Source: Oscillospiraceae bacterium (GTDB lineage: Bacteria > Bacillota > Clostridia > Oscillospirales > Oscillospiraceae). Taken from it: a DNA stretch of 35,319 nt. Below the pieces are notes generated by a model. It was not told where the DNA came from and searched no databases. It saw only the letters and a list, made by a program, of their open reading frames with translations. The stretch lies in contig JAFVCD010000001.1 of the NCBI GenBank assembly GCA_017479425.1, positions 1 through 35,319 on the forward strand, read 5' to 3'. Positions 5,201-30,556 of this stretch are shown here, piece by piece. Numbering within the stretch: the first letter of the stretch is position 1; every line of letters begins with the position of its first letter. The translations under genes were made by a program, and so were the position numbers.

Positions 5201-8200
5201 AGGTTCTGCCCACCTTGAGAAGCGCCATATCGGCGTTCTCGCTGAGAGTGAGGGTCAGCTCTGAACCTGCATTGAATCTCTCATAGGGAACTGTGATGTA
5301 AAGGAGCTTCTGAGTGGTGCCGTCCATATCGCGCTCAAGGGTGTAGCTGTAAAGCGCGTCTGCCGGAGCGCTCTCCGGAATTGAATAGACGGTGTTTCCG
5401 AACTCATCAGTGCTCGTTTCGTAAGGTACAACAGCGTGATCAGTGCCGTCAAGCTTTGCAGTTACAGTCGGCGCATCTTCGAGGTACTCAATCTCGACAA
5501 GCGCGTCAGCCGCCTTATCGGAGTTATAGACCTTTGTGCCGACGGGAACGGTATAGGAAGTGCCGTCAACGGTTATGCCGCCGAGACCTGCGGAGCGGTA
5601 GATGAGCATCTCGTCCGAGCCGAGGCGTCCGCGATACACAAGCTCCTGACCCGCCGCTTCGGGATCATAATCGCTCGTTGCGACGTAGCTTATATTCTGT
5701 CCTATGCTGATAAGGGACTGTGTTCCGGTGTCCTCATCGGTGTGGATGATGTATGCGAGCGCGTCCTCCTTGGCGGTGCCGTCACTCTCGACCCAGAAGT
5801 CGATATCGCCGCCGTAGTAGTAGGAGAGGCAGACGGAGACGAACGGAATGATGGTGAAGCCGCCGGTAATGCGCTCAAGGTTTATGCCGAAGAACGCTCT
5901 TGCAAGGCTCAGTCCGCCGACAACGGGAACCTTGGCGGGGATCTTGACCGCTGCATTTGCATAAGCGTCAAAGTCGAAGCCGCCGTTCTCACGCTCGCCG
6001 ATAAAGAGCGCACCCTTTCCGACGAGAACTCCGAGATCAGCTATATCAATAAGTATCTTGGCGGAGAGGAATGCCGGGCTCTGCCACTGGATCTGGATCT
6101 CCGCAAGATTAACCAGCGGAAGAGATACGAGCCAGAGCTCAAGCTCAAGGCTGCCCACAATCTTAAGACCGGTCATCTTGAGGAGCATATCGATATTGCC
6201 TATGAGAGCAATACGGCTTGCAACTGAGCCGAGACCCATCGGTATGGAAACCGTTATGCCGCCTGCGAGCTGAAGAGGCATAGAGCCTACGTTCTCTCCG
6301 GTCATGATCCCATAAACGGTGTCAGCGAGGTTGCGGACGGCAACTCTGACTCTCGTCATATAGGTATTCGGCGCGATCTGGATGCCAGGAATTGCCTGAC
6401 GCTGGCCATCTACCTCAGTAGAGTCGGACTTGGCGAAATACTGGAACGCAAAGCAGTCCGGAAGGATGAGCCCGCTCGGTACCTCTTTGAAGGTAAAGCC
6501 TACATAGAAGCCGCCGAGCACGGGAAGCTTGAACTTGCCGCTCATCGCTAAGAGCGTCTGCCTCTCCCTTGAGTATTCTCTGTAATGTCTGACAAGCAGC
6601 GCTGCACCGGCCTCGGCAAAACGTCCGCTGGAGGCCATCTGATTTGTGGTTCCGGCCTGTGTGTCATCATACCCGCCGCCGTAATACTTAGTTGCGGCCT
6701 TCAGAATGCCGATATCCTTCCAGATATCAAAGCCTACGTTCGCGTCAGTGCCGTAGTAGCCCTTACTGTCGAAGGAAACCTCGTCAATGTCACCGCGGAA
6801 AATGGACATATTGACAAAACCGCCCATTCTGAGCTGATAGCTGCCCTTGTTTGAGTTGAGGCGGAAATCAACAAGCTCGAGCTGCATTGAGCCGGGGTTG
6901 TAGTTCTGTGTCGGAACGATGCCGAGCTGATTGAAATAAACGTCGCCCTCTGCGATCATCTCCATCGGGTTTGCCTGTTCGTAAGTAAGGCCGTTCAGAT
7001 GAGCCTTATATCCGTTCGTTGAAGCGGTAAGGCTGGAAACGTCGTAGATATTGGAGTCGTTGAAGCGCTCGGAATACTCGTCGACTCTGTCATTCAGAAA
7101 CAGCGTCTTTGCAAAGCCGTCGTAGAGATCGATGTTCCACTTCTGATTATAGAAGGTGTATTTCGCTCCGCTGACGGAGAGCTTGCCGTTTCCGTTCAGA
7201 GTCCAGTGATAGAGCTGAAAATCGTCTGTAAGCTTGCCCTTCTGCGCTTCTGAGAGCACAGCCTCTGTGGTAACGCCGAGCTGGGCGCGGTATTCAGAAG
7301 CAAAGCCCGCGTTATTCTTGAAGGAGTCGTAAATGCTCTCCTTTGAGAGCGTGATGGTTTCGCCCTGATAGGTTACAGTGCGGTTGATGACTGCCGGCTC
7401 GACTGATGTATCGACGATATAGCCGTCGGTCGTCGCCTTCACCCTGCCCTTGATCTCAAGAAGCACCTCTCCCTTGCTCCATTTCATCTCGGTCGTCCAG
7501 TTGAGAGAGTTGCTGTACTGAGTGTATGGGTTTATGGCGTTTTTGTATTCCTCGAGGTCAGCCTCATTTGCAAAAACCTGCACATCGTAGTAAGGAACGA
7601 GAGCACCTGATTTCTGAGTGTTGTAGACTGCACCCGCCTTGTCAACATGAAGGCTCGCGTTATTAAGCGCGCTTACAATATTCTCATATTTCTTATAATC
7701 ATTTGCAGACAGCGACTTGTAGCGGCGCGCTACCACGAGATAACCGCCGGTGCGAAGGCGCGATTCCTTAAGAGTATTGACGTCGATCTGCGCTTCGGAA
7801 ACAAAGCTCAGCAGCTCAGCGTTATCTCCCCTGAACCTCACCTCTATCGCGTATTTGCCGATTGGAAGAGTCGGGTCAGCCGCAAGTGCGTTGTTGGAGC
7901 TTGCGTCCGGACTTGCTTCATAGGGACTTGCCGCCGCTGCGGAAATGAGCGTGCCGCCAGTGTAGTCGATATTCATTATACCGGTAGCTCCGTCCTTATC
8001 GACGAGGCTTATGTCCGCCGGATGAACGAGATATCTGTCGCCGGTGAGAACATTCTGAAGGTAGACGTTGAAGTTGCGGTTCGGATAATCATTATTGTCT
8101 CCGGCATCACCGAGCGCGTAGGCGCCGAAGTTCGTAACGCCGACGGAGATGATCTTCTCATCGGAGTAATACGCCTGCTCAGGGGCGACGGAGTAGGCTC

Positions 8201-9767: not shown

Positions 9768-9784
9768 TATTTAGCCTCCCCCTT

Positions 9785-12700
9785 TTATTCTGCATCGGCG
9801 TTGATGAAGAAAGTGGTGAATTCTCTCTCTCGCTCGGCATTGCGAACGACAATAGTATACCAGCCGGTGCCCGGAAGATCATTTGCGTTAAGGGTGATCT
9901 GCGCCGTTGCGACGTCATTCTTTACTTCAACGGTCATCTCCTTGGAGAGAACGCCGAAGTACTTCATCTGTCCCTCGCGGAAGATGCCCTGCTTTACTGT
10001 GATGTAAAGCTTTGCCTCCTTATTTCTGACCTTTCCGAAACCGACAAGGTCAAATAGATCGTAGCGGCTGATATCGAGGACGATTTCCTTGTTTCCATTC
10101 CTGTTCACAAGCGAGGCGTCCTTGCTGGAGGAGCAGAAGAGAACGCCGTTTCCGTCCCTGATGAGCATTCCGTTTGCGGGAAGAATATAAACCGTTGTCG
10201 CACCGTAGCCGGTGTTGCCGGCCTTATCAGTCGCCGCAAGTACGATTGTATATGCGCCCGGCACCGATGTTTTGATCTTAGTGCCCTGAAGTGCCACTGT
10301 CACGTCATTTACGTCTGAGTCGTCGGTAATCACGACGTTTTCCCTGATCCAGGAGAGCACCTCATTCTCAGTCTTGTCCCCTGCTGTTGCGTCCATCGAG
10401 ATGACCGCAGGGAACCTGACAACAGGCGCGTTTCTGTCAAGGCCTGTTACCTTGATCGTGTAAAGCACGGTGTTTCCGAGAGAATCGGTGAGATACTGAT
10501 TATAAACGCCGTTATTCTCGAAGGTCTTTTCAATGGTGTATCTTCCGTTTTCATGAGTTACGGGAGTAGCGCCCTTGATTTTTCCGTCATAAACGGGGTT
10601 ATTCTCACTATAATTACCGGTTACGGTCGCCTTGATTTTCTCAACGCCGTTTTCGACAAAGCTCTCACCGAGAACTATGCTGTCAGGCGCCTCGACCTCG
10701 GTAACGATGCCGGTAACCTCGACTTTCTTCGAGAATATCCTGCCGCTCTCATCAGTGGCGGTGATAAGATAGGTTCCGTTTCTCGTCACGCTGTACGTCA
10801 TCGTGCGGCTGACGTCATTTCCGTTTACCTCAACTGCCTTTGCAACCTTTGTCGCGGGCATCGGCTTTAGGACAAGCGTTACGCCGTTTGAGATGAGCGA
10901 CGCGCCCTCTCCGAAGGTTTCAAAGCCCTCATAGCTCTCGGTTACGTCGAGGGTAAGCGGAGTTGTATCGAGCCAGGTAACATTTGCAGTTACGTCTGCG
11001 GTGTTGCCCACCTCGTTTGCGATCGTAAAGACCGCGGTGCCGTTTTCCCTGAATATATAAGTATTCGAGGCCCCGACGCTCACAAAATCACCGCTCTCTC
11101 CCTTGAATCTGAGATTGGTAACTGTGATAATCTCATCGCTCGAGACAGTTGCGGCGACGGTCTGCGCGGCAAAGTGCCTGCCCTCGTCGCTCCACTTGAG
11201 CTTGTAGGTCGGCTGACTGTCGTTGATATTGCTGACAACGTAGCTCACAAGGCCATCCTTGCTGTAGCTGCCGTTGAACGCGACTGTTTCATCGGAGCTC
11301 GTACCGTCCTTCTTGGTGAAGGTGAGCTTAACTCCTGTCGCGGCGTTTACCTCTCGGAGGGTGCTGCGCTTAATGAGGATATAATCCTCGCCGCTTCCCT
11401 GCGCGTTATCGGCTACCTCGAGCTTCGCATAGTCAGCTTCTGCGGTCACGTTCTCGCCGTTGCGGAACTTCATAAGGACATTGACGTTTCCGCTTCCGAG
11501 CTTGACCTTGATAACGCTCTCAAGCGGGCTCCAGCGCTTCCAGGTTACGGCGTCATCGCCGCTCTGTACCGCAACCGAATACTCGGCTCCGATGCATAGA
11601 GCGGAGGAATCGAGATTTTCAAGTCTTATGACCGCATATCTTGAATTGTTTTCTGTCTTAATGTCCAGAAGCTTAAGGCTCGGCTGCGCCACGGGACCGG
11701 AGACAGTATTTTTACCGTTCAGGTTGAAATTCTGATTTCTGACCTCTTCTCCGACCTTTGCCCAGACGCGAACCGCGGTCATATCCTTATAATCCGAGCT
11801 TCTGATATCGAGCTCTGCGGTATAGGTCTTCCACTCTGTGGGCTCTGCCGCGTCAGGTGCGGTAATTGCATACTGAATATTTGTCGCCTTGGAGGCGCTG
11901 ATCTCAACCACTATGCCCTCATCGGAGGAGCCCAACTGGTTTATAGTGATCTCTCCGACGCTGCCTGCAAGCGGATATGCCTTATCTACTGTCTTTTTGA
12001 CCTCTTCGCCCTTGGAATTCTTGAAGGAATAGAGAAGATGTATGTAATAGTAGCCGCTTACGCCGGTCTTTTCCGGCATCTCATAGCGATATGTGGTATT
12101 TCCATCAGTATCGGCAACCTTCGTCCCGGTAATGGCTTCGCCCCAGTCGGTATCGGTTTCCGGCTTCTGAGCTTTGTCATCGATAACGGCTCTTACCGTG
12201 AATTCCTTGCTCGATGAGAAGATATCGGTGCCGTAAGCGGTGCCGTAGATGTCGGCGTGGACTCCGGTTATACCGTCAAATGGTATCGTGCCCTCCGGGT
12301 CGGAAATATTGCAGATGATTTCAGCATCGCTGTTGACCTTGACGGTAAAATCGCTCTTTACAACAATCTTGTTTCCGTTTGCGGTGGTGTCCTCTGTGTA
12401 GACGAACAGCCTGTATTCGCCGGTCTTGACGTTTGCGTCAGCCGAGGAGACTGTGAAGGTCTTTTCCTTGCCGGAAACAGACTCGACCTCAGTCCAGCCG
12501 TTTACCTCGGTCACGTCTATCTCAGCATCCTTTGCGGCAAACTGATACTTGACGGTCTTTATGCCCGTGTTATCCGTGACCTTGACGTTTAACTTGACGT
12601 CCTCGGTATTGTCGGTGCCCTCAACGGCGGTAAACTCAGCGGCAGGAGCTGCCATATCGACGTAATCGGAGATGGCGAACGCCCAGTTTGAATCGTCCTT

Positions 12701-15700
12701 TTTGTACTTTTCCTGCGACCAGCCGGCATAATTTACCGCGCTCGCCATGAACTGCACGTCCGCTGTGTGGACTGCGTCCGCAAACTCATAGTATCTGCGA
12801 ACGACGCTGACCTTCATTTCATCGCTGCTTGCCGCGAGCATATCGGTATGGAATGCACTTCTGCGAGTTTCATCGGGGATATTCTGTGCTGTTCCGAGCT
12901 TGTTTACTAAGCTTCCCTCATTCTCCTTATAGACGCTATATCCCGTAAAGCTCGGAGCCGAGGTTTTGAGCGTGACCGTCTCGGCGGCCTTCGCCCTTCT
13001 TGAAGCGGAGCTGAGGTCGAGCCTGATGTAATCGTCGTCCTTCCTGCCGAAATACTGATTGTAGGTGGTTCCCCAATCCGCAGGCTCGACTTCTACAGGC
13101 GTATAGCCGAACTCGTAGTATTTATTCTCCTCAAACTCAGGCGCCGTGATCCAAGTTACCGGCTCAAAGTCTGTGCTTGAAGCGGAATAGTAATAGAATG
13201 CGCTGTCCCAATCCGCCGGCTTCTCGTTCATCGCAGAGGCAGATGCCGCACGGATATAATAGCTTCCGCTCTCAGGATATTCTGCCGTATAGGCTGTATA
13301 AACCCTGTCGCCCTTTGTAAGGAAGCTTGCGTACTCAGTGCTCCAGTTTGCAGGCTCTGCGCTCTGAAGCGCGTAGCTTACGCGGTAATAGGTTACGCCG
13401 GAATCGTAGGACGCAGATGTATTCTTCACATACTCTTCGCCGCTCAGAACGTAGTAATCGTCGTAAACGTCGTCCCACGCGTAGTAAACGTCCACGGTCT
13501 GGCTGTTCTCATCTGTGGTGGTTTCGGCCACTCCGTTCTCGTCGTAGCCTCTGACCTCAGTAATATCCTCTTCCGTTCTGAACTCAGCCGGAGAATACTC
13601 CGCTGCATAATAAGTATCTGGCGCAAACTCCGGAGCGAGCGTTGCCGCTTCGTAAGCTGTACCGTTATATATATAGTAGCTCTCGTTCCAGCTCGGATTG
13701 CCGGAAGCTTCAGAGTAACTGTCTTCTCCGGTTTTTGTATAGTAGGTTGTGCCGCTCTCGAATACGGGAGGCGCGCTCTCCTTCCACGAATCGAACCCGT
13801 TGTATTCGGCGGGGGCAAGCATATAGTAGTCTGCGTAGACGGTTTCCCAATTTGCAGGCTCTTCGCTGAGCTCGGTATAGGTATTGCCGCTCTTTGAATA
13901 GACATCGCCGGGATTGAACGCCGGGGCGTACTTCTCAGCCGCGGATACGTAGATCGGGGCGCCGTTTTCATCGGAGTCGCGGACGTACATCTCGTCAGCA
14001 TTTTCTGCTGTCAGCGCAGCGTCCGTCGCGGGATAGAGGTCATAATACACGCCGCTTCTGAACTCGGGAACGCCCGATATGCGCTCGAGCTTCTTATAGC
14101 TCTCGCCGTCCTTATAATAATAATGTGTATAATCGTCTGACTCGTCATAGACGTAAGTGCCGCTGTCGCTTACGGAGTATGTGCCGTCAGCATTTCTGAC
14201 GTACTTTATAGTTCCGCTGCCCTCATGGTACGGATCCCAGCCGTCAGGCTTCTCGGTAAGCGGCGCATAGCCGATCTCATAGATCTTGCCCGCCTCGAAT
14301 ACGGGGAAGCTTTCGCCCTCTCTGAACTTCAGATAGCTGTCACCGTTTTTGTAGTAATAATCGGTGTATGCGCTTTCCCAGTCAGCGGGCTCGCTCTCCA
14401 CCGGCGTAAACATCTCCGAGATATTTACGTTGAGCACCTCGGCGAGCTTTGCGAGATAGCCCGAGGGATTTGTCTTGTAGCTCGCGTCGGAATACTGCAT
14501 AAGCTGACGCGCGGAATCCCACGTCATATCTGAGGTGAATACCACAAGATGCCAGTCCCCTGCCCCGGTCTTTGCCGGAATGACTCCGCCTGCCGAGGTC
14601 GCTGAGAGCATATAGTCCTTTCCGCCGACGGTGACCTTTGAATCGTTGCCGGCTATGAGGGAGTATGCCTTGACCTTCTGATAATTGTTCGCCTTGAATG
14701 CGTCCGCTACCTGCTGAGCCTGCTCATTGCCGTCGACCCAGACGTAATAAACTATTCCGGCGCTGTTATCATTACCGGAGGTGGTATTGGAGGTGTGGTA
14801 CACACCGGAGCCCGTTTCAGCGACGTTTATCTGATAGGAGCCGTCGCCGAGCACCTTTATCTCGATCTCAGGCGCGGTATTGTCAACTCTGAGCTTCGCC
14901 CAGTTCATATTGGTTCCGTTGGAGGAAACGCCGATCGGCTCCGTGAGCGGATTGCCGACATAATCGGTCAGTATATAGGAGCCGGCGTTCGCCGTTTCAA
15001 CATAGATTCCCTCTATTTCAAGAGGAGAGGAGGAGTCGGCAATATAGCTGTAATAGGTATCCCTCTGCCACTGCGGCGCGCTTGCGCCGGTGACCTTTGT
15101 ATAGCCTGTATCTCCCTTTACATAGTAGTTTCCATAGGTCGTATCCCACGTCTGCGGCTGAACAGCCAGAAGCGTGTACATATCCGGAACGCTGGCGATG
15201 AAGTGCAGCTGCTTTGTTCCGATTCCGCCCTCATAGTCTGCAATAAGACCGTTATTCAGCTTGAGATACAGATCCTCGGGCGCATAGCCCGTTTCAGTGC
15301 CGTTGTCAAAGAACTCTCTGAGCTTGACTGTCTCGGAGAAATTGAGATAGATATCAAACGAATCGCCCTTGTTGAGCACGAGATCGGTGAGTATCTCGGG
15401 CTGAACAGCGTTCGAAGTCTTTGAATAAGTCGGCGTAACGGCGTCGATAACAAAGTCAAAGCCGCTCGAGGCAGAGGTATCGACCGCAAACGGATTTGTC
15501 ACGCCGCTCTTCTGATAATTGGATTTTGTGATATTAACTGTGCCGGTGATTACGCTTCTCTTGTTGTAATATCCCTCAGAGCCGGGCGCAATAGAGGAGA
15601 TCGAGGCCTCGTCCACAAGAACGTAGGTATTGCCATCCTTATAGTAGGTCTTGCCGTACTCGAAGCCGCTCGTCGCCTTCTCATAGAGAAGGTCGGTGGA

Positions 15701-17035
15701 ATAGACGCCATTTGAGCCCTTGTACTCAATCAGCTTTCCGCCGATCTTCAGCGGGTTGCCCGCGAGGTCGTGGAAGGAAGCGAGCACGATGCTGTCGATA
15801 AGGCTGAAGGTATTGTTGCTGCTCGCAAGTCCTATCCAGTCGCCATCACCGGGCACGGGATTGTTTCCGAAATAATCGCCGTCAGAGGCCTTCCACTCGT
15901 AGTGAAGTCCCTTCACAAAGCCCGCGAGTGCATTTACTCTCTCGCTCTCTGTGGTGAGAACGTCATTATTGAATGTGTTAGTGAGATTCATATAAACCGG
16001 CTCGCCCTGACGGGTGTAGCCCGTGCCCTCGGTGTTGTTGAAGAGGACGCGGCTTCCGAGCTGGCTCAGAAGCTCATAGTGGTCGGTATTCCTTCTCGTC
16101 GGCTCGCTCAGCGAGGTCTTGACCGCCTCGGAGAACTCAAAGTCGAGGGTTATTCTGCCGTCAGTGCCGAGAAGGATCTCCGGCTTGCCGTTGGCATATG
16201 AGAGGTTTCCGTTCGCATCGAGAGTATAGCCGTTAAGACGGGGCTCATCGCACTTGCGGAAGAGCAGAACGCAGTCGCCGATGCCGACGTCTTTATCCGC
16301 CCAGCCGTTACTGAACTTGCCGGCGCTCTTATCGACCTTCCACTCAATGGTAATGGTATCGTTCGCGCTGACGGAAACCCAGCCGCCGGAGCTGAATTCC
16401 TTTTTCTTTCCCTCGCTCTTTCCGCTGCTGCCGAGAGTTTCGGAGCCCTTCTTGATCCAGCCCCAGACGTAGGTGTGGTCATCCGGCCAGGACTTGCGCG
16501 CCTCCTTACCAGGCGAGGTATAGCCCTTGAAGTACATCTGGAGCTTACCTGACTCAGCAAGAGTCTTGAGGGTCGGGTTCTCAGCGATCACGATCTTCAG
16601 ATTGCCGCTTTTCTTGCCCTTGTCGTTGTAGGTACCGACATTCAGCGAATTGACATACTGACCGGAGCCGTAGTTGACCTTCTGGCCGTTTGAGCGCGAA
16701 AAGCCCTCCGCCGGCTGAGAAAGCCACTTGCCGTTGTAGATTCCGAAGCAGTTCATCATGTTGTATTCGTCGATATTGCCGGTCTGCCCGTTGCCTGATA
16801 TCTTTCCTCCGACTCCTCCGACAGTCAGGTCTTCAGCGCCGAATTTTCCGTTTACGATAAGAGCCGCGCTCCCTCCGGTGCCGATACCCGCATCGTAATA
16901 TTTTCCGGCTGCGCTCGTATCAACGTCGGGTCTTTCCGAGCCGAGCGCCTTTACCGGCATACTCAGTGCAGGAATCATTCCCAGCACCATAACGGCGCTG
17001 AGAACGGAGCATAAAAACCGATTCATCTTCTTCAT
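9785..17035 (-). CDS. Giant secreted protein with aromatic YY-repeat region (2416 aa)
   Basis: The N-terminus is a signal peptide (MKKMNRFLCSVLSAVMVLGM, cleavage near residue 31 at VKA|LG). Residues about 875-1345 contain roughly eight degenerate units of ~45-60 residues with the pattern P-A-D/N-W...Y..YY....G..Y.......P.F..G..YY....Y, e.g. EPADWESAYTDYYYKNG and EPANWETVYADYY. Related single units occur near residue 628 (QTWDTTYGNYYVKGDTGY) and near 455. The C-terminal half is a string of beta-sandwich segments, including an Ig-like module around residue 2200 with TDKAGNTGYGATTVYI. No SLH, LPxTG, LysM or choline-binding repeat was found, so the anchoring is unknown. It could bind the neighbouring SLH protein, whose gene follows after 17 bp. 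No enzymatic motif was seen; function unknown, surface or adhesive role inferred. Confidence 0.85.
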   Translation of the reverse strand: MKKMNRFLCSVLSAVMVLGMIPALSMPVKALGSERPDVDTSAAGKYYDAGIGTGGSAALIVNGKFGAEDLTVGGVGGKISGNGQTGNIDEYNMMNCFGIYNGKWLSQPAEGFSRSNGQKVNYGSGQYVNSLNVGTYNDKGKKSGNLKIVIAENPTLKTLAESGKLQMYFKGYTSPGKEARKSWPDDHTYVWGWIKKGSETLGSSGKSEGKKKEFSSGGWVSVSANDTITIEWKVDKSAGKFSNGWADKDVGIGDCVLLFRKCDEPRLNGYTLDANGNLSYANGKPEILLGTDGRITLDFEFSEAVKTSLSEPTRRNTDHYELLSQLGSRVLFNNTEGTGYTRQGEPVYMNLTNTFNNDVLTTESERVNALAGFVKGLHYEWKASDGDYFGNNPVPGDGDWIGLASSNNTFSLIDSIVLASFHDLAGNPLKIGGKLIEYKGSNGVYSTDLLYEKATSGFEYGKTYYKDGNTYVLVDEASISSIAPGSEGYYNKRSVITGTVNITKSNYQKSGVTNPFAVDTSASSGFDFVIDAVTPTYSKTSNAVQPEILTDLVLNKGDSFDIYLNFSETVKLREFFDNGTETGYAPEDLYLKLNNGLIADYEGGIGTKQLHFIASVPDMYTLLAVQPQTWDTTYGNYYVKGDTGYTKVTGASAPQWQRDTYYSYIADSSSPLEIEGIYVETANAGSYILTDYVGNPLTEPIGVSSNGTNMNWAKLRVDNTAPEIEIKVLGDGSYQINVAETGSGVYHTSNTTSGNDNSAGIVYYVWVDGNEQAQQVADAFKANNYQKVKAYSLIAGNDSKVTVGGKDYMLSATSAGGVIPAKTGAGDWHLVVFTSDMTWDSARQLMQYSDASYKTNPSGYLAKLAEVLNVNISEMFTPVESEPADWESAYTDYYYKNGDSYLKFREGESFPVFEAGKIYEIGYAPLTEKPDGWDPYHEGSGTIKYVRNADGTYSVSDSGTYVYDESDDYTHYYYKDGESYKKLERISGVPEFRSGVYYDLYPATDAALTAENADEMYVRDSDENGAPIYVSAAEKYAPAFNPGDVYSKSGNTYTELSEEPANWETVYADYYMLAPAEYNGFDSWKESAPPVFESGTTYYTKTGEDSYSEASGNPSWNESYYIYNGTAYEAATLAPEFAPDTYYAAEYSPAEFRTEEDITEVRGYDENGVAETTTDENSQTVDVYYAWDDVYDDYYVLSGEEYVKNTSASYDSGVTYYRVSYALQSAEPANWSTEYASFLTKGDRVYTAYTAEYPESGSYYIRAASASAMNEKPADWDSAFYYYSASSTDFEPVTWITAPEFEENKYYEFGYTPVEVEPADWGTTYNQYFGRKDDDYIRLDLSSASRRAKAAETVTLKTSAPSFTGYSVYKENEGSLVNKLGTAQNIPDETRRSAFHTDMLAASSDEMKVSVVRRYYEFADAVHTADVQFMASAVNYAGWSQEKYKKDDSNWAFAISDYVDMAAPAAEFTAVEGTDNTEDVKLNVKVTDNTGIKTVKYQFAAKDAEIDVTEVNGWTEVESVSGKEKTFTVSSADANVKTGEYRLFVYTEDTTANGNKIVVKSDFTVKVNSDAEIICNISDPEGTIPFDGITGVHADIYGTAYGTDIFSSSKEFTVRAVIDDKAQKPETDTDWGEAITGTKVADTDGNTTYRYEMPEKTGVSGYYYIHLLYSFKNSKGEEVKKTVDKAYPLAGSVGEITINQLGSSDEGIVVEISASKATNIQYAITAPDAAEPTEWKTYTAELDIRSSDYKDMTAVRVWAKVGEEVRNQNFNLNGKNTVSGPVAQPSLKLLDIKTENNSRYAVIRLENLDSSALCIGAEYSVAVQSGDDAVTWKRWSPLESVIKVKLGSGNVNVLMKFRNGENVTAEADYAKLEVADNAQGSGEDYILIKRSTLREVNAATGVKLTFTKKDGTSSDETVAFNGSYSKDGLVSYVVSNINDSQPTYKLKWSDEGRHFAAQTVAATVSSDEIITVTNLRFKGESGDFVSVGASNTYIFRENGTAVFTIANEVGNTADVTANVTWLDTTPLTLDVTESYEGFETFGEGASLISNGVTLVLKPMPATKVAKAVEVNGNDVSRTMTYSVTRNGTYLITATDESGRIFSKKVEVTGIVTEVEAPDSIVLGESFVENGVEKIKATVTGNYSENNPVYDGKIKGATPVTHENGRYTIEKTFENNGVYNQYLTDSLGNTVLYTIKVTGLDRNAPVVRFPAVISMDATAGDKTENEVLSWIRENVVITDDSDVNDVTVALQGTKIKTSVPGAYTIVLAATDKAGNTGYGATTVYILPANGMLIRDGNGVLFCSSSKDASLVNRNGNKEIVLDISRYDLFDLVGFGKVRNKEAKLYITVKQGIFREGQMKYFGVLSKEMTVEVKNDVATAQITLNANDLPGTGWYTIVVRNAEREREFTTFFINADAE

Positions 17036-17928: not shown

Positions 17929-18534
17929 GTGCAAAACCCGGATGAATTTGCAAATATAATCAAGGAGCTGCGCTTAAAAAAGGGTCTTTCCCAGCAGCAG
18001 CTTGCGGAGCAGATGATGGTCTCGCGCAGCGCAGTGTCAATGTGGGAGCTCGGTTCGCGGCTTCCGGACATCAATATGCTTGGCCGCCTTGCGGACTGTC
18101 TCGGCGTAGAGCGTCATATCCTGCTCGACGCGATTCAGTCCGAGCCGGGTGAGACAGTAAATATAATCGTAGCAGAGGACATCCCGATGCTTCTTAACGG
18201 CGCTGTCCGTCTTATCGAGAGCGAGGTTCCTCAGGCAAATATCGTGGGCTTTGAAAGCGGCGCCGAGGCGCTCGAATACGCCCGGTTCAACCGCGTTTTG
18301 GTAGCGTTTCTCGACATCGAGCTCGATGATAAAATGAACGGGCTCGAGCTTGCGCGAAAGCTGCTCGAGATCGACCCCCACACCAATATCATTTTTCTCA
18401 CAAACTTCGCTGAATATATGACACAGGCTATCTACGACCATTGCAGCGGCTATATTCTTAAGCCGCTGAGCCGTGAGCGCGTCCGGCACGAGCTCAAGAA
18501 CCTGCGCTTTCCGGTGAGAGGGTTTGAATTATGA
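17929..18534 (+). CDS. XRE-family HTH fused to a response-regulator receiver domain
   Basis: 201 residues. Residues about 8-62 form a Cro/C1 (XRE) helix-turn-helix (LSQQQLAEQMMVSRSAVSMW). Residues about 76-195 form a CheY-like receiver with the acidic pair Glu83-Asp84, phospho-acceptor Asp129 in VAFLDIEL, Thr158 in FLTNF and Lys178 in YILKPLS, so phosphorylation should be possible. The order is reversed from ordinary response regulators, which carry the receiver first and, when paired with LytS-type kinases, usually end in LytTR. The GTG start at 17929 is supported by CGGAGG 5-6 bases upstream. The stop overlaps the kinase ATG by 4 bases (ATGA), indicating translational coupling with its likely partner. 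It probably binds DNA near its own divergent promoter region; the targets are inferred. Confidence 0.92.
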   Translation: MQNPDEFANIIKELRLKKGLSQQQLAEQMMVSRSAVSMWELGSRLPDINMLGRLADCLGVERHILLDAIQSEPGETVNIIVAEDIPMLLNGAVRLIESEVPQANIVGFESGAEALEYARFNRVLVAFLDIELDDKMNGLELARKLLEIDPHTNIIFLTNFAEYMTQAIYDHCSGYILKPLSRERVRHELKNLRFPVRGFEL

Positions 18535-20255
18535 AAAAGCATAAAAACAGACAGAGGGCATTGGACATCATCATCGCATCATCGCTTGCCGCAGTTATTG
18601 CGCTCACAGCTTTTCTGTGGTTCGAACCGGGAATGAAGGGCGTTGCTCCGTCATTCTCTCCTTTTCTCATTCTTCGCCCAACGCAGGTGCAGGATGAGGT
18701 CATTGCTGACTACGCCGGAGTTCAGCGCGTATATGAATTTGATCTGACGAGCGCGTCCGGCATACGAAGCGGAGTGCTGTTCGTGCATCTTCGCCACACC
18801 ATCGCCATCGCTGAGAAGGACGGTATTATAATAGCGGATACCGGCGAGTCCGAGTCGTGGCATATCGGGCATACACCCGGCAACTACTGGCTTTCGCTGC
18901 CGCTCTCTTCCGAGGACGCCGGCAAAACGCTTCGCATAACTCTCACCCCGGTCTATTCCGGCTTCCGCACTTTTGAGCCTGTATTTCTCGTTATGGACAG
19001 GCAGACTCTCCTACACACAGAGGTATTGCCGGACGAAGCTCCGGTCCTGATCATCGGCTCAATAACGGCAATAATCGGCTTTCTGCTTATGCTGCTCGCA
19101 CTTTTTCTCGGGCTGGAGGCTCGTGACCGCCGTCACGTTTTCTATCTCGGCGCAGTTTCCTGCGCGGCAGGAATATGGAAGCTCTGCGGTCTTTCCGTTC
19201 TGCCGCTGCTGCTTGAATGGTATGGCAGGCAAAAGCTTTTATGGTACATCGGTGCAACGGCGTATCTGCTGATGCTTGTGCTGTCGCTGAGATTTCTTTC
19301 TTTGATGCGTAATGGCGAAAATGACCGCGTCGGAACTCTATGCTGCTGCTTCGGCGTTTTCGGCACAATCGCAATAATTGCGCTGCAGGTATTCGGAATC
19401 GTTGAGCTGCACGAGGTACTGATCCCCTACGGCGTCGGTATGGCGGCGCTTCATCTTATCTCACTGCTTGGACAAAAGCCTGAGCGCGCGGCTTTATTAT
19501 GGCTGATCCCGACCTTTGCGGCTCTCGCGCTCGACCTTATAATCTTCTCGCGCGAAGGGCGCTTCCCTACCGCCCCGACATTCATAGTCTGGATACTGCT
19601 TAATCTTATCGTTCGCGGCATAATCTTTCTTCGCCAGGCAATCCGCCGCAAGCAGGAGCTTCAGGAGAAGGACGCAGAGCTTCGCGGTGCAAAAATCCAG
19701 AATCTCATCAGTCAGATTCGTCCGCACTTCATATACAATACCCTTGCCTCGATCAGTATGCTCTGTGACAGCGATCCGAAGCGGGCTTCTGAGGTTGTAG
19801 GAAGCTTCAATAACTATCTGCAAGCCAACTTCACAGCCCTCTCCGCCACAGAGCCGATCGCTTTCGTGGCTGAGCTTGAGCACACCAAAGCATATCTGAA
19901 CGTGCAGATGGCGCTTTATGAGTCAAGGCTCATCGTCGAATATGACACCGATTACATCACCTTCCGCCTGCCTCCGCTTACGCTTCAGCCGATAGTTGAA
20001 AACAGCGTTAAGCACGGAATCGGAAAAACGCATCACGAGGAGCGGATCTTTATATGCTCGCGTGCCGTGGAAGGTGGAGCAGAGGTCATCGTTGAGGACA
20101 ACGGAACGAAGTACGAGCCCTCGCTGAACAGTTCGCTTCACGTCGGACTTGAAAACATACGCGAGCGGCTTTCAATGATGTGCGGCGGAACTCTCAGTAT
20201 TGCGCCTCGCGCAGACGGCGGCACTATTGTGCGCATTTTTGTACCGAAGAAATAA
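18531..20255 (+). CDS. LytS/YpdA-like sensor histidine kinase with 7TMR-DISM-like sensor
   Basis: 574 residues. An N-terminal membrane segment (about 12-30) is followed by an extracellular beta-rich domain (about 40-165), then seven or so membrane segments (about 175-370), like the 7TMR-DISM sensor class. A short coiled coil (RRKQELQEKDAELRGAKIQ) leads to a His_kinase domain with phospho-acceptor His399 in QIRPHFIYNTL. The HATPase part has the N-box LQPIVENSVKHGIG, G1 VIVEDNG and G2 GLENIRERL. It should autophosphorylate on His399 and pass phosphate to Asp129 of the overlapping XRE-receiver gene. The signal is unknown, though the extracellular domain could sense an envelope or carbohydrate cue. 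Transcription likely ends at the hairpins downstream of 20266. Confidence 0.93.
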   Translation: MKKHKNRQRALDIIIASSLAAVIALTAFLWFEPGMKGVAPSFSPFLILRPTQVQDEVIADYAGVQRVYEFDLTSASGIRSGVLFVHLRHTIAIAEKDGIIIADTGESESWHIGHTPGNYWLSLPLSSEDAGKTLRITLTPVYSGFRTFEPVFLVMDRQTLLHTEVLPDEAPVLIIGSITAIIGFLLMLLALFLGLEARDRRHVFYLGAVSCAAGIWKLCGLSVLPLLLEWYGRQKLLWYIGATAYLLMLVLSLRFLSLMRNGENDRVGTLCCCFGVFGTIAIIALQVFGIVELHEVLIPYGVGMAALHLISLLGQKPERAALLWLIPTFAALALDLIIFSREGRFPTAPTFIVWILLNLIVRGIIFLRQAIRRKQELQEKDAELRGAKIQNLISQIRPHFIYNTLASISMLCDSDPKRASEVVGSFNNYLQANFTALSATEPIAFVAELEHTKAYLNVQMALYESRLIVEYDTDYITFRLPPLTLQPIVENSVKHGIGKTHHEERIFICSRAVEGGAEVIVEDNGTKYEPSLNSSLHVGLENIRERLSMMCGGTLSIAPRADGGTIVRIFVPKK

Positions 20256-20268
20256 ACGGCGTGCCATA

Positions 20269-20298
20269 TAAAAAGGGTCCGGAAATTTTTCCGGACCC
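20269..20298 (-). terminator. Left terminator hairpin flanking repeat element A
   Basis: GGGTCCGGAAA pairs with TTTCCGGACCC (20275-20298). An A-run at the left edge gives a U-tract only for minus-strand transcripts, so it best terminates the deformylase operon after read-through of element A. On the plus strand it is followed by TCAATG, a poor terminator for the kinase gene. Confidence 0.75.
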
Positions 20299-20300
20299 TC

Positions 20301-20464
20301 AATGCGTAGACAAAGTCTCCGCATCGAACATATTTTGCGCTTTGAGAGTGCAAAATATGACGCCTGCGGGCGGGTTATGCGACGTGAAGGGGCCTCTTGG
20401 CCGGCCCCTTCACAGAACCCCGCCACCTTTATCCAACGCTGTTCTTTTTTTGTCTACAGTCTGA
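20301..20464. repeat. Hairpin-rich repeat element, copy A
   Basis: This 164-bp segment matches 27839-27999 over its whole length with only scattered differences. It carries a short terminal inverted repeat (GTAGACAAA at 20306-20314, TTTGTCTAC at 20449-20457). Internal hairpins include a CATATTTTGC stem with a 7-base loop (20329-20359) and an 11-bp stem of GTGAAGGGGCC with GGCCCCTTCAC (20384-20413). It lies between the convergent kinase and deformylase genes and is flanked by two copies of one terminator hairpin. No convincing ORF is present. It could be a MITE- or REP-like element or a structured 3'-UTR RNA. Confidence 0.88.
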
Positions 20465-20465
20465 T

Positions 20466-20495
20466 GGTCCGGAATTATTTCCGGACCCTTTTTTT
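20466..20495 (+). terminator. Right terminator hairpin flanking repeat element A
   Basis: GGTCCGGAATTATTTCCGGACC (20466-20487) is followed by a run of seven T (20489-20495), so it is a good intrinsic terminator for the kinase transcript. Its stem is nearly the same as the left copy at 20275-20298. The T-run touches the deformylase stop codon at 20494. Confidence 0.85.
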
Positions 20496-20904
20496 ATATC
20501 AGTATTCCGTCGCAGTGGTCGATCTCGTGCTGAATTATCTCGGCAGTCCAGCCGGTAAAGGTCTTGAAGCGCGGCTCAAGGCGCAGATTTTCATATTTCA
20601 CCTTGACGCTCTTAAACCGCTTCGTTCTGCGTATTCCGGAGAGCGACAGACAGCCCTCCTCAACCTCGTAAACGCCGGAGAACTTCACGATTTCGGGGTT
20701 CAGCATGACCATATACTCGCCGCCATTGTCAAAGGCGATTATACGCCTCAGAACGCCGATCATATTCGCCGCCATACCGACGCAGCCGTCCTTGTGGTAC
20801 CGGAGCGTATCGACGAGGTCGAGTGCGGTATCGAGATCCTCTCGCGTCGCGGGGAGCGATTTCTGCGCGAGGAAAACGGGATCGTGTACAATTTCTCTGA
20901 TCAT
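20494..20904 (-). CDS. def: Peptide deformylase, short clostridial type
   Basis: 136 residues. The enzyme removes the formyl group from the N-terminal Met of new proteins in the cytoplasm. Motif 2 is EEGCLS with metal ligand Cys85; motif 3 is QHEIDH with ligands His126 and His130 and catalytic Glu127. Motif 1 reads GCVGMAANMIG, with Asn47 where classical enzymes have Gln (GxGxAAxQ). This change and the lack of an extended C-terminus fit, from family knowledge, a short deformylase group common in Clostridia that sits beside a classical housekeeping copy elsewhere. The ATG overlaps the stop of the upstream phosphatase gene by 4 bases (ATGA), so the two are coupled. The Asn may alter activity or substrate preference. 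Confidence 0.88.
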   Translation of the reverse strand: MIREIVHDPVFLAQKSLPATREDLDTALDLVDTLRYHKDGCVGMAANMIGVLRRIIAFDNGGEYMVMLNPEIVKFSGVYEVEEGCLSLSGIRRTKRFKSVKVKYENLRLEPRFKTFTGWTAEIIQHEIDHCDGILI

Positions 20905-27007: not shown

Positions 27008-27175
27008 AACCCCTGAATAAATCGAAGTGAGCAGATTTTTCGTCTGATAAAGATTAAAAAGCGCAGAAATACCTTGTGTATTTCAAGTTTTCGTGACAAA
27101 ATCAGGCGGAAAATACGCCGCCAAGACGCCTGCGGCGATTCTTTCAGAGGTTCCCTAAAAAAACGGAGGTGCGGC
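27008..27175 (+). promoter_or_regulatory. Long structured 5' leader of the LUD-domain gene
   Basis: About 168 bases without a supported gene. Visible structure: a 7-bp hairpin GAAATAC/GTATTTC (27066-27084); and a CGCC segment at 27116-27119 that can pair either with GGCG just upstream (27105-27108) or, extended to CGCCGC, with GCGGCG downstream (27132-27137). Competing stems of this kind are seen in attenuators and riboswitches, but I recognise no known class. GGAGG at 27165-27169 is the ribosome binding site. Confidence 0.4.
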
Positions 27176-27805
27176 ATGAACGAAAACATAACAAAAAGGA
27201 ACACACTGCTTGCAAAGAAGGTCATAAAGGGTCTCGGCACACGAAATATGACCGGCTATTGGGCCGAAAGCCGTGAGGATGCGCTGAAAATCGCCCTCTC
27301 ACTCATTCCCGAGGGCGCGAGCGTTACGATGGGCGGCGCAATGAGCGCCCACGAAATCGGGCTTGTGAGCGCAGTTAAGGACGGCAATTACAATTTCATC
27401 GACCGCGACGCCATGACGGACAAGCGCGCCGCTATGCTCGCCGCCTACGACGCCGACGTTTTCCTCGCCGGCTGCAACGCAGTAACTGAGGACGGCATAC
27501 TCGTCAATATCGACGGCAACGCAAACCGCGTTTCCGCCATCGCTCAGGGACCTAAGAAGGTCATTTTCATCGTAGGCATGAACAAAATCACGCCAGACCT
27601 CGACTCCGCCATGAAGCGCGCGAGAAACGTCGCCGCGCCGATAAACGCTCAGCGCTTTGGTCTGTCCACTCCCTGCTCCGTGACCGGCGCCTGCGCCGAC
27701 TGCAAGAGTCCCGACACGATATGCTGTCAGTTCCTTATCACGCGCTACTCGCGCCACAAGGACAGAATCCATCTCATACTTGTAGACGATAATCTCGGAT
27801 TTTGA
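27176..27805 (+). CDS. LUD-domain protein (lactate-utilization / YkgG-like)
   Basis: 209 residues. The start is the ATG at 27176, with GGAGG 6 bases upstream; the frame is open further back but lacks a better start. The LUD (DUF162) fold fills the protein: AKKVIKGLGTRNMTGYWAES, EGASVTMGGAMSAHEIGL, then ADVFLAGCNAVTEDGILVNID and GPKKVIFIVGMNKI. Members with the CSVTGACADCKSPDTIC segment near the C-terminus are widespread stand-alone LUD proteins in anaerobes, where the role is not established. Relatives LutB/LutC take part in lactate oxidation. The Cys residues in that segment could bind metal. It is cytoplasmic and apparently monocistronic, ending at the terminator at 27811. Confidence 0.88.
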   Translation: MNENITKRNTLLAKKVIKGLGTRNMTGYWAESREDALKIALSLIPEGASVTMGGAMSAHEIGLVSAVKDGNYNFIDRDAMTDKRAAMLAAYDADVFLAGCNAVTEDGILVNIDGNANRVSAIAQGPKKVIFIVGMNKITPDLDSAMKRARNVAAPINAQRFGLSTPCSVTGACADCKSPDTICCQFLITRYSRHKDRIHLILVDDNLGF

Positions 27806-27808
27806 TGC

Positions 27809-27838
27809 AAAAAGCGCCCCCCTTGAGTGGGGCGCTTT
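27809..27838. terminator. Left terminator hairpin flanking repeat element B
   Basis: AAAGCGCCCC (27811-27820) pairs with GGGGCGCTTT (27829-27838), starting right after the LUD stop codon. An A-run on its left gives a U-tract for minus-strand transcripts. The copy at 27999-28023 has almost the same sequence including the TTGAGT loop. Confidence 0.8.
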
Positions 27839-27999
27839 AATGCGTAGACAAAGTCTCCGCATCGAACATATTTGCGCCCAATGAGCGCAAATATGACGCC
27901 TGCGGGCGGGTGATGCGACGTGAAGGGGCCTCTCGGCCGGCCCCTTCACAGATCCCCGCCTCCTTTATCCAACGCTTTTCCTTTTTGTCTGCAGTCTGA
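27839..27999. repeat. Hairpin-rich repeat element, copy B
   Basis: 161-bp counterpart of 20301-20464. Terminal inverted repeat: GTAGACAAA (27844-27852) and TTTGTCTGC (27984-27992). The central stem CATATTTGCGC/GCGCAAATATG (27867-27895) is 11 bp with a 7-base loop. It differs from copy A in both arms yet still pairs fully, which indicates selection on structure. The stretch of the GTGAAGGGGCC hairpin is unchanged. Again it lies between convergent genes (LUD and alpha/beta hydrolase) inside a duplicated terminator. Confidence 0.88.
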
Positions 28000-28023
28000 A
28001 GCGCCCCCTTGAGTGGGGCGCTT
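27999..28023. terminator. Right terminator hairpin flanking repeat element B
   Basis: AAGCGCCCC and GGGGCGCTT with a loop containing TTGAGT, overlapping the stop codon (28023-28025) of the minus-strand hydrolase gene. It is a near copy of 27811-27838 with one C fewer. Confidence 0.8.
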
Positions 28024-28814
28024 TAACTATCTATGAAGTCAAAAGCTCTCCTGTAGAAATCGCCGGACTCGTCATAAAGTCCGTGACCGAGTTCGGGGTA
28101 GATATACATATCGCTGTACGGGATGAGCGCGTGAAGCTCCTGCGCCGCGTCAGCACCGACGATTTTATCTCTCCCGCCGCCGATTATGAGCGTCGGGCAG
28201 GCTATTTTCCCGATCTCACCGCGCTTGTCGAAGCTGAGAATCGCCTCGCAGTTGGCTCTGAACCGGTCGTAGCTCTTCGGCTTTCCGATCAATCCGAGAA
28301 GCGGGTACATTTTGCGCATCGCTCTGAGGTATCCCTCAGAGTAGCTCTTTTCTGCCGTGTCGCGCATAAGCGCGCCGTGATCGCCGCGGTCTGCAAGCTC
28401 GAGCCAACGCGAGATATTCTCACATATAATATCGTTCACCCCAGCCGCGCTGACGGCGAGCACGAGCCGTTCGACCCTCTCCGGCGCGATAAGCGCGAGA
28501 GAGGCGGCTATCATGCCGCCCTCAGATACGCCGAGAACAGAGAATTTTTTTACCTTCAGCTCATCGAGGGCGCAGAGCTGGTCGCGCGCCATATCGTCAA
28601 TGCTCGCGCCGATTTTCAGCTCACTTTTCCGGCTGAAAATATACACGCGGCGGTCTTTGAGAAACGGAATGTACGGCGGCATTAGCGCGAGCGCCTTGCC
28701 TTGCACCGTAGTAAGCCCGTCGGAGAGCCCGGGAAGCACGACGACCGCTCTCTTGCCCGTTCCAAACGCGGCGTAATCCATGCCGCAGGCAGTACCGGAG
28801 TCAATATATTTCAT
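28023..28814 (-). CDS. Alpha/beta hydrolase
   Basis: 263 residues, alpha/beta-hydrolase fold. Nucleophile elbow GVSEGG with Ser near residue 97, acid in GGGRDKIVG near 216 and His in ELGHGLYDE near 244: the full triad is visible. The N-terminal VVVLPGLSDG holds the oxyanion-hole region. No signal peptide, so cytoplasmic; substrate not predictable, as the family includes esterases, lactonases and peptidases. The ATG has GAGAGG upstream and lies 11 bp after the asparaginase stop, so it shares that transcript. Confidence 0.9.
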   Translation of the reverse strand: MKYIDSGTACGMDYAAFGTGKRAVVVLPGLSDGLTTVQGKALALMPPYIPFLKDRRVYIFSRKSELKIGASIDDMARDQLCALDELKVKKFSVLGVSEGGMIAASLALIAPERVERLVLAVSAAGVNDIICENISRWLELADRGDHGALMRDTAEKSYSEGYLRAMRKMYPLLGLIGKPKSYDRFRANCEAILSFDKRGEIGKIACPTLIIGGGRDKIVGADAAQELHALIPYSDMYIYPELGHGLYDESGDFYRRAFDFIDS

Positions 28815-29839: not shown

Positions 29840-29861
29840 AAATATTTTTAGGTGTTATAAT
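29834..29861 (+). promoter_or_regulatory. Candidate promoter of the NlpC/P60-like lipoprotein gene
   Basis: -35 TTGCAA (29834-29839), 16-bp spacer, -10 TATAAT (29856-29861), about 30 bp before the ATG at 29894. Confidence 0.65.
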
Positions 29862-29893
29862 TGCGATATATACAGATAATTTGGAGGAACACA

Positions 29894-30556
29894 ATGAAAT
29901 ACAGAAGATTACTCGCGCTTTTGCTTGCCGCGCTTATGCTCGCCGCGCTCTTCTCCGGCTGCAGGCAGAAGGAGGAAGAGCCTAAAGAGGAAGCTAAGAC
30001 CGAAGAGCCGGCACCTGCTCCCGCGCCAGAGCCTCAGCCCGAGCCCGAGCCTGAACCCGCACCCGAGCCTGAACCTGAACCCCAGCCCGAGCCGCAACCT
30101 GAGCCCGAGCCTGAGCCTGAACCCCAGCCCGAACCGGAGCCCGAGCCTCAGCCCGAGCCCGAACCGGAGCCGACAGTCGCAAGCACCACGGCAGAGAAGA
30201 TTGTAGCGCTTGCTAAGGAGCTTATCGGAACAGAGTACGAGTCCGGCGGTCAGGGTCCCGACACCTTTGATAACTCCGGCTTTGTCTACTACGTCTGCAA
30301 GGAAAACGGCGTAAAAATTCCGCGCAGAAGCTCTGAGATCGCCTCAGCCGGCGAGGAAGTCGGTCGAAGCAGTCTGCTCCCCGGCGATATTGTAGTATTC
30401 TCGAATGAAATAGGCGGCAGCGCAGGATTTGTCGGAATCTACGTCGGCGGCGATCAGTTTATCGCCTGCAACAACTCAAAAACGCCAACCAAGCTTCAGA
30501 ACATGGCCGTTCAGTATTGGGAGGATCGCTTCCTCAGCGGCAGAAGAGTTGCATAA
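29894..30556 (+). CDS. Lipoprotein with Pro-Glu spacer and inactive NlpC/P60 domain
   Basis: 220 residues. The start at 29894 has TTGGAGG 7 bases upstream and opens a lipoprotein signal with lipobox LFSGC (Cys near residue 21). Residues about 40-95 are a low-complexity spacer of alternating Pro-Glu and Pro-Gln that would hold the domain away from the membrane. Residues about 97-220 show the NlpC/P60 fold ([17 protein letters not shown], then [27 protein letters not shown]). The nucleophile position, normally Cys in DCSGF, is Asn127 (FDNSGFV), and the general-base His of GHVGIYVG is Phe179 (GFVGIYVG). The third polar position is also not the usual His. It is therefore very probably a pseudo-enzyme binding peptidoglycan stem peptides or a partner rather than cleaving them. 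Monocistronic, terminator at 30651. Confidence 0.9.
30016..30168 (+). repeat. Low-complexity Pro-Glu / Pro-Gln coding repeat
   Basis: Repeated CCCGAGCCTGAA-type units encode alternating PE and PQ residues in the lipoprotein spacer. Such tracts can change length by slippage in frame. Confidence 0.85.

What the first reader, a model, noticed from the sequence alone, without database searches (positions are those of the whole stretch)
27809..28025. Second copy with a different duplicated terminator
Copy B repeats the arrangement with an unrelated hairpin (AAGCGCCCC..TTGAGT..GGGGCGCTT). Two independent loci with the same element but different, locally duplicated terminators make coincidence unlikely. 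They imply a mechanism that targets or copies terminator hairpins, such as a hairpin-directed transposase acting in trans or template switching at hairpins.
Basis: partly seen in the sequence, partly recalled or inferred. Interest (0 to 1): 0.8.

Follow-up and report, generated by a model that had tools for sequence, protein, structure and literature searches.

The report
Mobile element that duplicates its hairpin
A tiny gene-less mobile DNA element of gut bacteria inserts at DNA hairpins, often at gene ends, and the whole hairpin ends up copied on both sides, an outcome that an earlier paper had drawn only as a possibility.

Summary
Window 27838-27998 holds a 161-bp element between two copies of one terminator-like hairpin; 20300-20463 holds a second copy inside a different duplicated hairpin. 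The element is a multi-copy MITE: 36 places in this genome, 80 listed stretches in two goat-gut Oscillospiraceae MAGs. Of 97 copies with both flanks, 82 have direct repeats above the 99th percentile of mismatched flanks, usually the hairpin itself (within 2 nt in 70 of 76). Orthologous empty sites hold one hairpin (5 sites); two non-hairpin sites overlap by 7 bp. The right end matches that of IS1182-type insertion sequences of the same genus, and four complete IS1182 elements of the family are flanked by 29-35 bp hairpin repeats. Best reading: an IS1182 DDE transposase acting in trans joins the element to the 5' feet of an extruded hairpin, a route drawn hypothetically in PMC5678879. The REP/Y1 idea is not supported. 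Unexpectedly, the element's core is a covarying structured motif found in 60 of 400 family genomes, sometimes with other ends.

The parts
27812..27837 (+). Copy B, left copy of the target hairpin (9-bp stem AAGCGCCCC/GGGGCGCTT), 6 nt after the stop codon of the upstream gene
27838..27998 (+). Copy B of the 161-bp MITE (first base T where most copies have C)
27838..27853 (+). Copy B, left terminal inverted repeat (TAATGCGTAGACAAAG)
27865..27895 (+). Copy B, internal hairpin P1 (its sequence differs between the genera compared)
27897..27908 (+). Copy B, P2 segment CGCCTGCGGGCG of the conserved core
27920..27949 (+). Copy B, P3 hairpin GTGAAGGGGCC...GGCCCCTTCAC of the conserved, covarying core
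27984..27998 (+). Copy B, right terminal inverted repeat (TTTGTCTGCAGTCTG); one base from the right end seen after IS1182-type transposase ends in genomes G181 (C49) and G270
27999..28023 (+). Copy B, right copy of the target hairpin; its last base lies in the stop codon of the convergent gene
20273..20299 (+). Copy A, left copy of its (different) target hairpin GGGTCCGGAAATTTTTCCGGACCC
20300..20463 (+). Copy A of the MITE, 164 bp
20464..20489 (+). Copy A, right copy of its target hairpin (loop differs at two positions)
27074..27805 (+). LUD-domain protein gene, convergent neighbour on the left of copy B
28023..28814 (-). alpha/beta hydrolase gene, convergent neighbour on the right of copy B
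18531..20255 (+). sensor histidine kinase gene, left neighbour of copy A
20494..20904 (-). peptide deformylase gene, convergent right neighbour of copy A

Best explanation
The feature is a non-autonomous transposon (MITE) of about 160 bp, very probably moved in trans by an IS1182-family DDE transposase. Shown: it is multi-copy, its right end is that of IS1182-type ISs of the genus, most copies sit between two copies of a hairpin specific to that site, and the empty sites found have one hairpin. Inferred: the transposase recognises an extruded hairpin or cruciform; [quoted passage not shown] On linear AT-rich targets the same enzyme would make a duplication of about 7 bp. Where the target is a terminator between convergent genes, as at both window copies, duplication leaves each neighbour with its own terminator, which would make insertion nearly harmless and could explain the high copy number.
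For: Multi-copy: 36 places above 70 bits in the own genome, dozens in G181, 80 stretches listed in MAGs RGIG1539 and RGIG3191. Site-specific repeats: 82 of 97 above control. Duplication length minus hairpin length is within 2 nt in 70 of 76, r = 0.73; in the 65 exactly abutting cases the duplication starts with A in 57 and ends with T in 62; T-rich and A-rich sides are equal (27 against 25 of 65). Empty sites with one hairpin: L103, L104, L118, L124, L100; two non-hairpin sites with a 7-base overlap, L119 (exact) and L149 (diverged sequence). IS link: in G181, contigs C42 and C49 begin inside an IS1182-type transposase C-terminus and 13 bases after its stop reach TTTGTCTACAGT(T/C)TG followed by a hairpin; G270 has TTTGTCTACAGTCTG plus a hairpin after such a C-terminus. 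Four complete ISs (L169, L219, L229, L243), all over the NF033551 cut-off (385-401 bits against 270), with ends of the type CAGNYTGTCRARAAA, are flanked by 29-35 bp hairpin repeats. The stem-loop duplication route was drawn as a possible pathway b in PMC5678879 (Discussion part 1 of 2 read).
Against: No IS1182 transposase was found in the window's own genome, an 84% complete assembly. The complete IS with exactly this element's two ends was not seen: in G181 only C-terminal fragments at contig starts, which score 25 bits against a cut-off of 270 and give no NCBIfam or Pfam match at the thresholds (1e-5, 1e-4); they align to the complete transposase L169 at 41% identity. The left end (CAATGCGT) departs from the right end (CAGACTGT). 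15 of 97 copies lack a significant flank repeat: L003 has different hairpins at its two ends, L005, L017, L027 and L099 have a hairpin on one side only, and a few have short repeats of 6-8 bp. Two full ISs (L224, L233) have different hairpins at their ends. In 6 of 80 copies with hairpins on both sides, and in one of the four complete ISs, the loop of one hairpin copy is inverted, which a simple staggered cut does not produce.
Confidence: 0.85

Rival explanations
1. The element is moved by a REP-type Y1 (HUH) transposase that recognises hairpins.
For: Y1_Tnp matches exist in the own genome (3) and in G306 (1).
Against: G181, 98% complete with dozens of copies, has none. The element has terminal inverted repeats and target duplications, which Y1 elements lack (recalled), and shares its right end with IS1182-type ISs.
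Confidence: 0.02
2. The element inserts between two pre-existing tandem hairpins, or carries the hairpins with it, so nothing is duplicated at insertion.
For: Most copies show a hairpin on both sides.
Against: Five orthologous empty sites hold a single hairpin. Hairpin sequences differ from site to site. The two flanks are identical over 18 bp or more in 36 of 97 copies.
Confidence: 0.02
3. Same transposase, but the target is a single-stranded hairpin (lagging strand or R-loop), not a double-stranded cruciform.
For: Hairpin stem scores are mostly 8-13 (75 of 97 right-hand hairpins), short for spontaneous cruciform extrusion (recalled). Inverted loops in some copies point to replication-type template switching.
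Against: No bias of the element towards the T-rich or A-rich side was seen (27 against 25 of 65). Orientation relative to the replication fork was not tested. Joining two ends to one strand would not by itself duplicate a hairpin (inference).
Confidence: 0.25
4. The duplications arise from template switching or segmental duplication at hairpins with no transposase.
For: Inverted loop copies (L093, L131, L138) look like template-switch products.
Against: Precise element ends, direct whole-hairpin repeats in most copies, 7-bp overlaps at non-hairpin sites, and the same pattern around complete IS1182 elements.
Confidence: 0.03

Closest known systems
IS1272 / TnSha1 (IS1182 family, Staphylococcus)
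   Same: IS1182-family transposase; hairpins, many of them terminators, as targets; no primary sequence consensus (PMC4923244 passages and Discussion part 1 of 2; PMC5678879 passages and Discussion part 1 of 2)
   Different: IS1272 and TnSha1 delete or replace the hairpin and give no target duplication; here the whole hairpin is duplicated. PMC5678879 drew hairpin duplication only as a possible pathway.
Other IS1182-family members, e.g. ISPse1 and ISCaa15
   Same: Transposase family; terminal inverted repeats of 16 and 18 bp
   Different: Listed with 4-bp direct repeats (PMC3281130 passages; PMC3196728 passages); here whole hairpins, or about 7 bp at non-hairpin sites. I recall that ISfinder lists direct repeats of 0-60 bp for the family; no call confirms this.
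REP elements and REP-associated Y1 transposases
   Same: Short, dispersed, hairpin-bearing extragenic repeats moved in trans (recalled)
   Different: This element has terminal inverted repeats, target duplications and IS1182-type ends; the transposase class differs
Terminator-like MITEs such as SPRITE and RUP of pneumococcus
   Same: Short mobile elements; SPRITE bears terminator-like hairpins (PMC10969869 passages)
   Different: The term IS1182 does not occur in that review's main text, and the passages seen mention no whole-hairpin target duplication

Membership tests
IS1182-family MITE | Ends matching those of an IS1182 IS in the same or a related genome | tested here: met
   Right end TTTGTCTACAGTCTG found after IS1182-type transposase C-termini in G181 (C49; C42 with one change) and G270. 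The left end of that IS was not seen, so this is met for one end only.
IS1182-family MITE | Autonomous IS1182 IS present in the same genome | tested here: inconclusive
   None in G000 (84% complete); C-terminal fragments in G181; a complete IS1182 element in G117 of the same genus.
IS1182-family MITE | Short, multi-copy, no conserved gene | tested here: met
   157-165 bp, dozens of copies, single-base indels between copies; that it encodes nothing is inferred from these indels.
IS1182 family with palindromic targets | Insertion at hairpins | tested here: met
   82 (right) and 86 (left) of 97 ends abut a hairpin against 31 of 2502 random positions.
IS1272-like stem-loop replacement | Loss of the hairpin, no target duplication | tested here: not met
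   Repeat above control in 82 of 97 copies; five empty sites have one hairpin.
REP / Y1 system | Partner Y1 transposase in every carrier; no terminal inverted repeats | tested here: not met
   No Y1_Tnp in G181, though 3 in G000 and 1 in G306; terminal inverted repeats present.
Known Rfam RNA family (for the core) | Match above gathering score | tested here: not met
   No match in the window; in 7 loci searched at E up to 1, none of 12 listed matches reached its family's gathering score.

The most novel reading that the evidence does not exclude
The core (P2, linker, P3, preceded by a hairpin P1 whose sequence differs between genera) is an undescribed structured motif that spreads through the family by riding on hairpin-targeting transposases. 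It is found in 60 of 400 genomes and 29 of 106 genera, with compensatory changes, and is carried with IS1182-type ends in several genera and with at least two other kinds of end in others. It may act as an RNA or as folded single-stranded DNA. Insertion itself may process the two folded target hairpins separately, which would give both direct and, in a minority, loop-inverted hairpin duplications.
Probability: 0.35. Interest if true: 0.8.

Novelty: new variant of a known kind. Interest (0 to 1): 0.6.

Why it matters
A whole-hairpin target duplication was proposed in 2017 as one possible outcome of structure-directed DDE transposition (PMC5678879), beside the deletion seen with IS1272. Here are about 68 distinct natural insertion sites (82 copies less 14 that one search shows to be shared) plus four complete ISs showing that outcome, with duplication length following the hairpin, empty sites, and 7-bp overlaps at non-hairpin sites. 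This gives a ready comparative system for asking how one transposase family duplicates, deletes or ignores a hairpin, and how an element can insert into a terminator and leave both neighbours with one. The shared structured core points to a mobile motif that is not in the Rfam copy searched.

Tried and rejected
PF13586 in the own genome: no match. NF033551 in the own genome: no match. REP/Y1 partner: rejected. IS6-type ends for the cores with GTTGCAAAAT ends: I suspected IS6 from memory, but no IS6 transposase (NF033587) and no DDE_Tnp_1_6 (PF13751) was found in the 7 genomes searched, so their partner is unknown.

Loop inversion as a proven product of insertion: not shown. At element-free hairpins compared between species, 1 of 56 was inverted (55 direct or identical), against 6 inverted and 67 direct between the two copies around an element (Fisher p = 0.14). 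From I left out 56 comparisons whose partner no longer forms a hairpin (55 direct, 1 inverted). From, where eight pairs scored as inverted, I dropped L125 (different hairpins chosen) and L004 (one-point difference) on inspection; five further pairs scored equal. The shared insertion L023 (direct) / L140 (inverted) suggests at least one inversion after insertion.

Sites not used as empty sites because the locus is rearranged: L028/L163 against L152, L026 against L146, L096 against L137, L146 against the window.

Literature: ten searches of the open PMC library listed no paper that I recognised as describing this element or an IS1182 whole-hairpin duplication as observed fact. I saw passages or part of the Discussion of only five papers; no preprints are held, and most subscription papers are missing. 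A FEMS review on ISs was not held. One search repeated a listing without need.

Full report
What is in the window. Copy B (27838-27998, 161 bp) and copy A (20300-20463, 164 bp) are copies of one element. Each lies between two copies of a hairpin, and the two hairpins are unrelated to each other. Both copies lie between convergent genes: a LUD-domain gene and an alpha/beta hydrolase gene for B, a histidine kinase and a peptide deformylase for A. At copy B the left hairpin starts 6 nt after one stop codon and the right hairpin ends inside the other stop codon, so the ancestral site was probably one terminator shared by two convergent genes (inference).

It is a multi-copy element. The window lies in a 1.77-Mb, 44-contig assembly, 84% complete. 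Copy A as query finds 36 places above 70 bits there, 30 of them nearly full length. A pattern from the left end lists 80 stretches (possibly a capped list) in two MAGs, Oscillospiraceae RGIG1539 and RGIG3191 from goat gut. Several contigs of genome G181 have exactly the lengths of RGIG1539 contigs, so I take the two to be the same MAG. The element is 157-165 bp, mostly begins CAATGCGT(A/C)GACAAAG and ends TTTGTCTACAGTCTG.

The flanks. I took 112 loci (32 of G000, 80 of the two MAGs) and found 118 element matches; 98 had both ends and at least 45 nt of flank, 97 of them different. Of the 97, 82 have a flank-to-flank direct repeat above the 99th percentile of 3000 mismatched pairs. The repeats are 15-34 bp, or 19-34 bp without L133 (a wrong alignment) and L151 (partial). 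The repeat abuts the left end exactly in 75 and the right end exactly in 68 of 82. Where it abuts within 2 nt, its length equals the length of the best hairpin within 2 nt in 70 of 76 (r = 0.73). Among the 65 exactly abutting cases the first base is A in 57 and the last is T in 62; the stem continues by at most one pair outside the repeat in 54; a T-rich side lies right in 27 and an A-rich side left in 25, so no orientation bias is seen. A hairpin with a stem of at least 8 abuts the right end in 82 and the left end in 86 of 97 copies, against 31 of 2502 random positions. The two flanks are identical over 18 bp or more in 36 of 97. About 15 of the 97 are shared orthologous insertions (my reading). 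Of the 15 without a significant repeat, L003 has two different hairpins, L005, L017, L027 and L099 have a hairpin on one side only, and others have short repeats.

Empty sites. Comparing the three genomes at the same loci, five hairpin sites without the element hold one hairpin: the flanks of the filled site overlap there by 24-29 bases (L118 for L010, L103 for L006 and L142, L104 for L008 and L089, L124 for L145, L100 for L149). Two sites without a hairpin show a 7-base overlap: L119 for L020, where the sequence agrees, and L149 for L100, where it has diverged. A third 7-bp repeat, AGTATAT, flanks a relative in G061 (L285, read); L148 and L123 have repeats of 8 and 6 bp. So the repeat is made at insertion, is usually the hairpin where there is one, and is about 7 bp where there is none.

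The enzyme. In G181 two contigs start inside the C-terminus of an IS1182-type transposase and, 13 bases after its stop codon, reach TTTGTCTACAGT(T/C)TG followed by a hairpin; a third contig start encodes part of the same C-terminus. These fragments score only 25 bits with NF033551 and give no family match on their own at the thresholds; their link to the family rests on the genome search and on 41% identity to L169 over the C-terminus. In G270, same genus, the same 15-base end follows a related C-terminus (55% identity) and is followed by a hairpin. Of 33 loci with IS1182-type matches, five (four distinct ISs, in G117, G271, G209 and G066) showed long exact repeats at IS spacing: hairpins of 31, 30, 29 and about 35 bp, next to ends of the type CAGNYTGTCRARAAA; their proteins pass the NF033551 cut-off with 385-401 bits. 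In a scan of 24 such loci most ends that I could recognise by eye abut a hairpin, while two ISs with both ends (L224, L233) have different hairpins left and right. No such gene was found in the window's own, incomplete genome.

How it probably works. IS1272, of the same family, replaces or partly deletes its target hairpin (PMC4923244, PMC5678879; passages and part of each Discussion). [quoted passage not shown] That is what the present sites show. The steps shown here are one matching end, the hairpin target, the duplication and the empty sites; cruciform extrusion, attack at the 5' feet and gap repair are inferred. Two other IS1182 members in the papers seen are listed with 4-bp repeats. One copy sits in a hairpin with a 7-base TTGCAGA loop next to a T-arm and a CCA end, which I read as a tRNA-Cys remnant (ARAGORN calls no tRNA there). 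Structure therefore seems to matter more than being a terminator.

What does not fit. In 6 of 80 copies with hairpins on both sides (L009, L093, L124, L131, L138, L140), and in the complete IS L243, the loop of one copy is inverted relative to the other; L093, L131 and L138 are exact reverse complements over 27-33 bp. Inversion of loops between species at element-free hairpins was 1 of 56 where both sides form a hairpin, which is not significantly lower (p = 0.14). The shared insertion L023/L140 argues for at least one later inversion. Template switching between the two hairpins during gap repair is a possible cause (idea only).

The core. More distant relatives found by DNA search in the family, 15 of 200 genomes in all including G000 and G181, mostly share only the middle of the element. 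A covariance model of 14 core sequences finds it in 60 of 400 family genomes and 29 of 106 genera, often in many copies; some of these matches are weak (E up to 0.001). On 50 aligned matches (49 distinct) the two helices are 97.8% paired, with 88 cells changed on both sides against 21.5 (sd 6.2) in shuffles and at most 29 when slid; the count of further pair types does not exceed the shuffles (255 of 500). The alignment was fitted to the model, which favours it. A third hairpin, P1, precedes the core in most of the 31 loci folded and has a different sequence in different genera. Rfam has no match at gathering score in the window, and none of the 12 E-value matches in seven loci reaches its gathering score. 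Several of these relatives have IS1182-type ends and hairpin repeats (e.g. L074 37 bp, L284 32 bp, L296 37 bp, L298 24 bp). Exact repeats of 12 bp or more were found in 23 of 56 loci scanned, a count that includes tandem copies and non-hairpin repeats. Others have ends with GTTGCAAAAT or TGTCTCA, and no partner transposase was found for these in the two searches made. The core thus seems separable from its ends; its function is unknown.

Verdict. Observation confirmed; a hairpin-directed transposase in trans is right, but of IS1182 (DDE) rather than REP (Y1) type. A new variant within a known kind: a MITE family with a target-duplication mode drawn only as a possibility in the papers I could read.

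Noticed in passing
L071-L082, L246-L314; window 20361-20413 and 27897-27949: The middle of the element is a conserved, covarying structured motif in 60 of 400 genomes of the family (29 of 106 genera), with no Rfam match at gathering score where searched, carried with several kinds of transposon ends.
   Followed up: partly
L009, L093, L124, L131, L138, L140, L243: The two hairpin copies around the element are loop-inverted relative to each other, in some cases exact reverse complements.
   Followed up: partly
L130 around 1950-2150 (minus strand): A copy of the element lies in what looks like the anticodon arm of a tRNA-Cys 3' remnant next to a tRNA cluster.
   Followed up: partly
L214 and L215 ends (G000 C19, C18), L068 end (C15), L012: Another dispersed repeat with a hairpin (AAGGTTGAAACTTGTTTCAACCT) and a shared stretch of about 120 bp ends at left ends of this element, which suggests nested insertion.
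   Followed up: no
L266 (G030) and L310 (G075): Two core-bearing relatives are flanked by 25- and 36-bp direct repeats that are not simple hairpins.
   Followed up: no
window 2283-17035 (minus strand) and 1-413: Two very long open reading frames (2494 and 2416 aa) fill much of the window, and a 197-nt tandem repeat (89% identity) lies at its start.
   Followed up: no
window 30005-30178: A run of Glu-Pro-type repeats (GAGCCTGAACCC units) inside the open reading frame 29861-30556.
   Followed up: no
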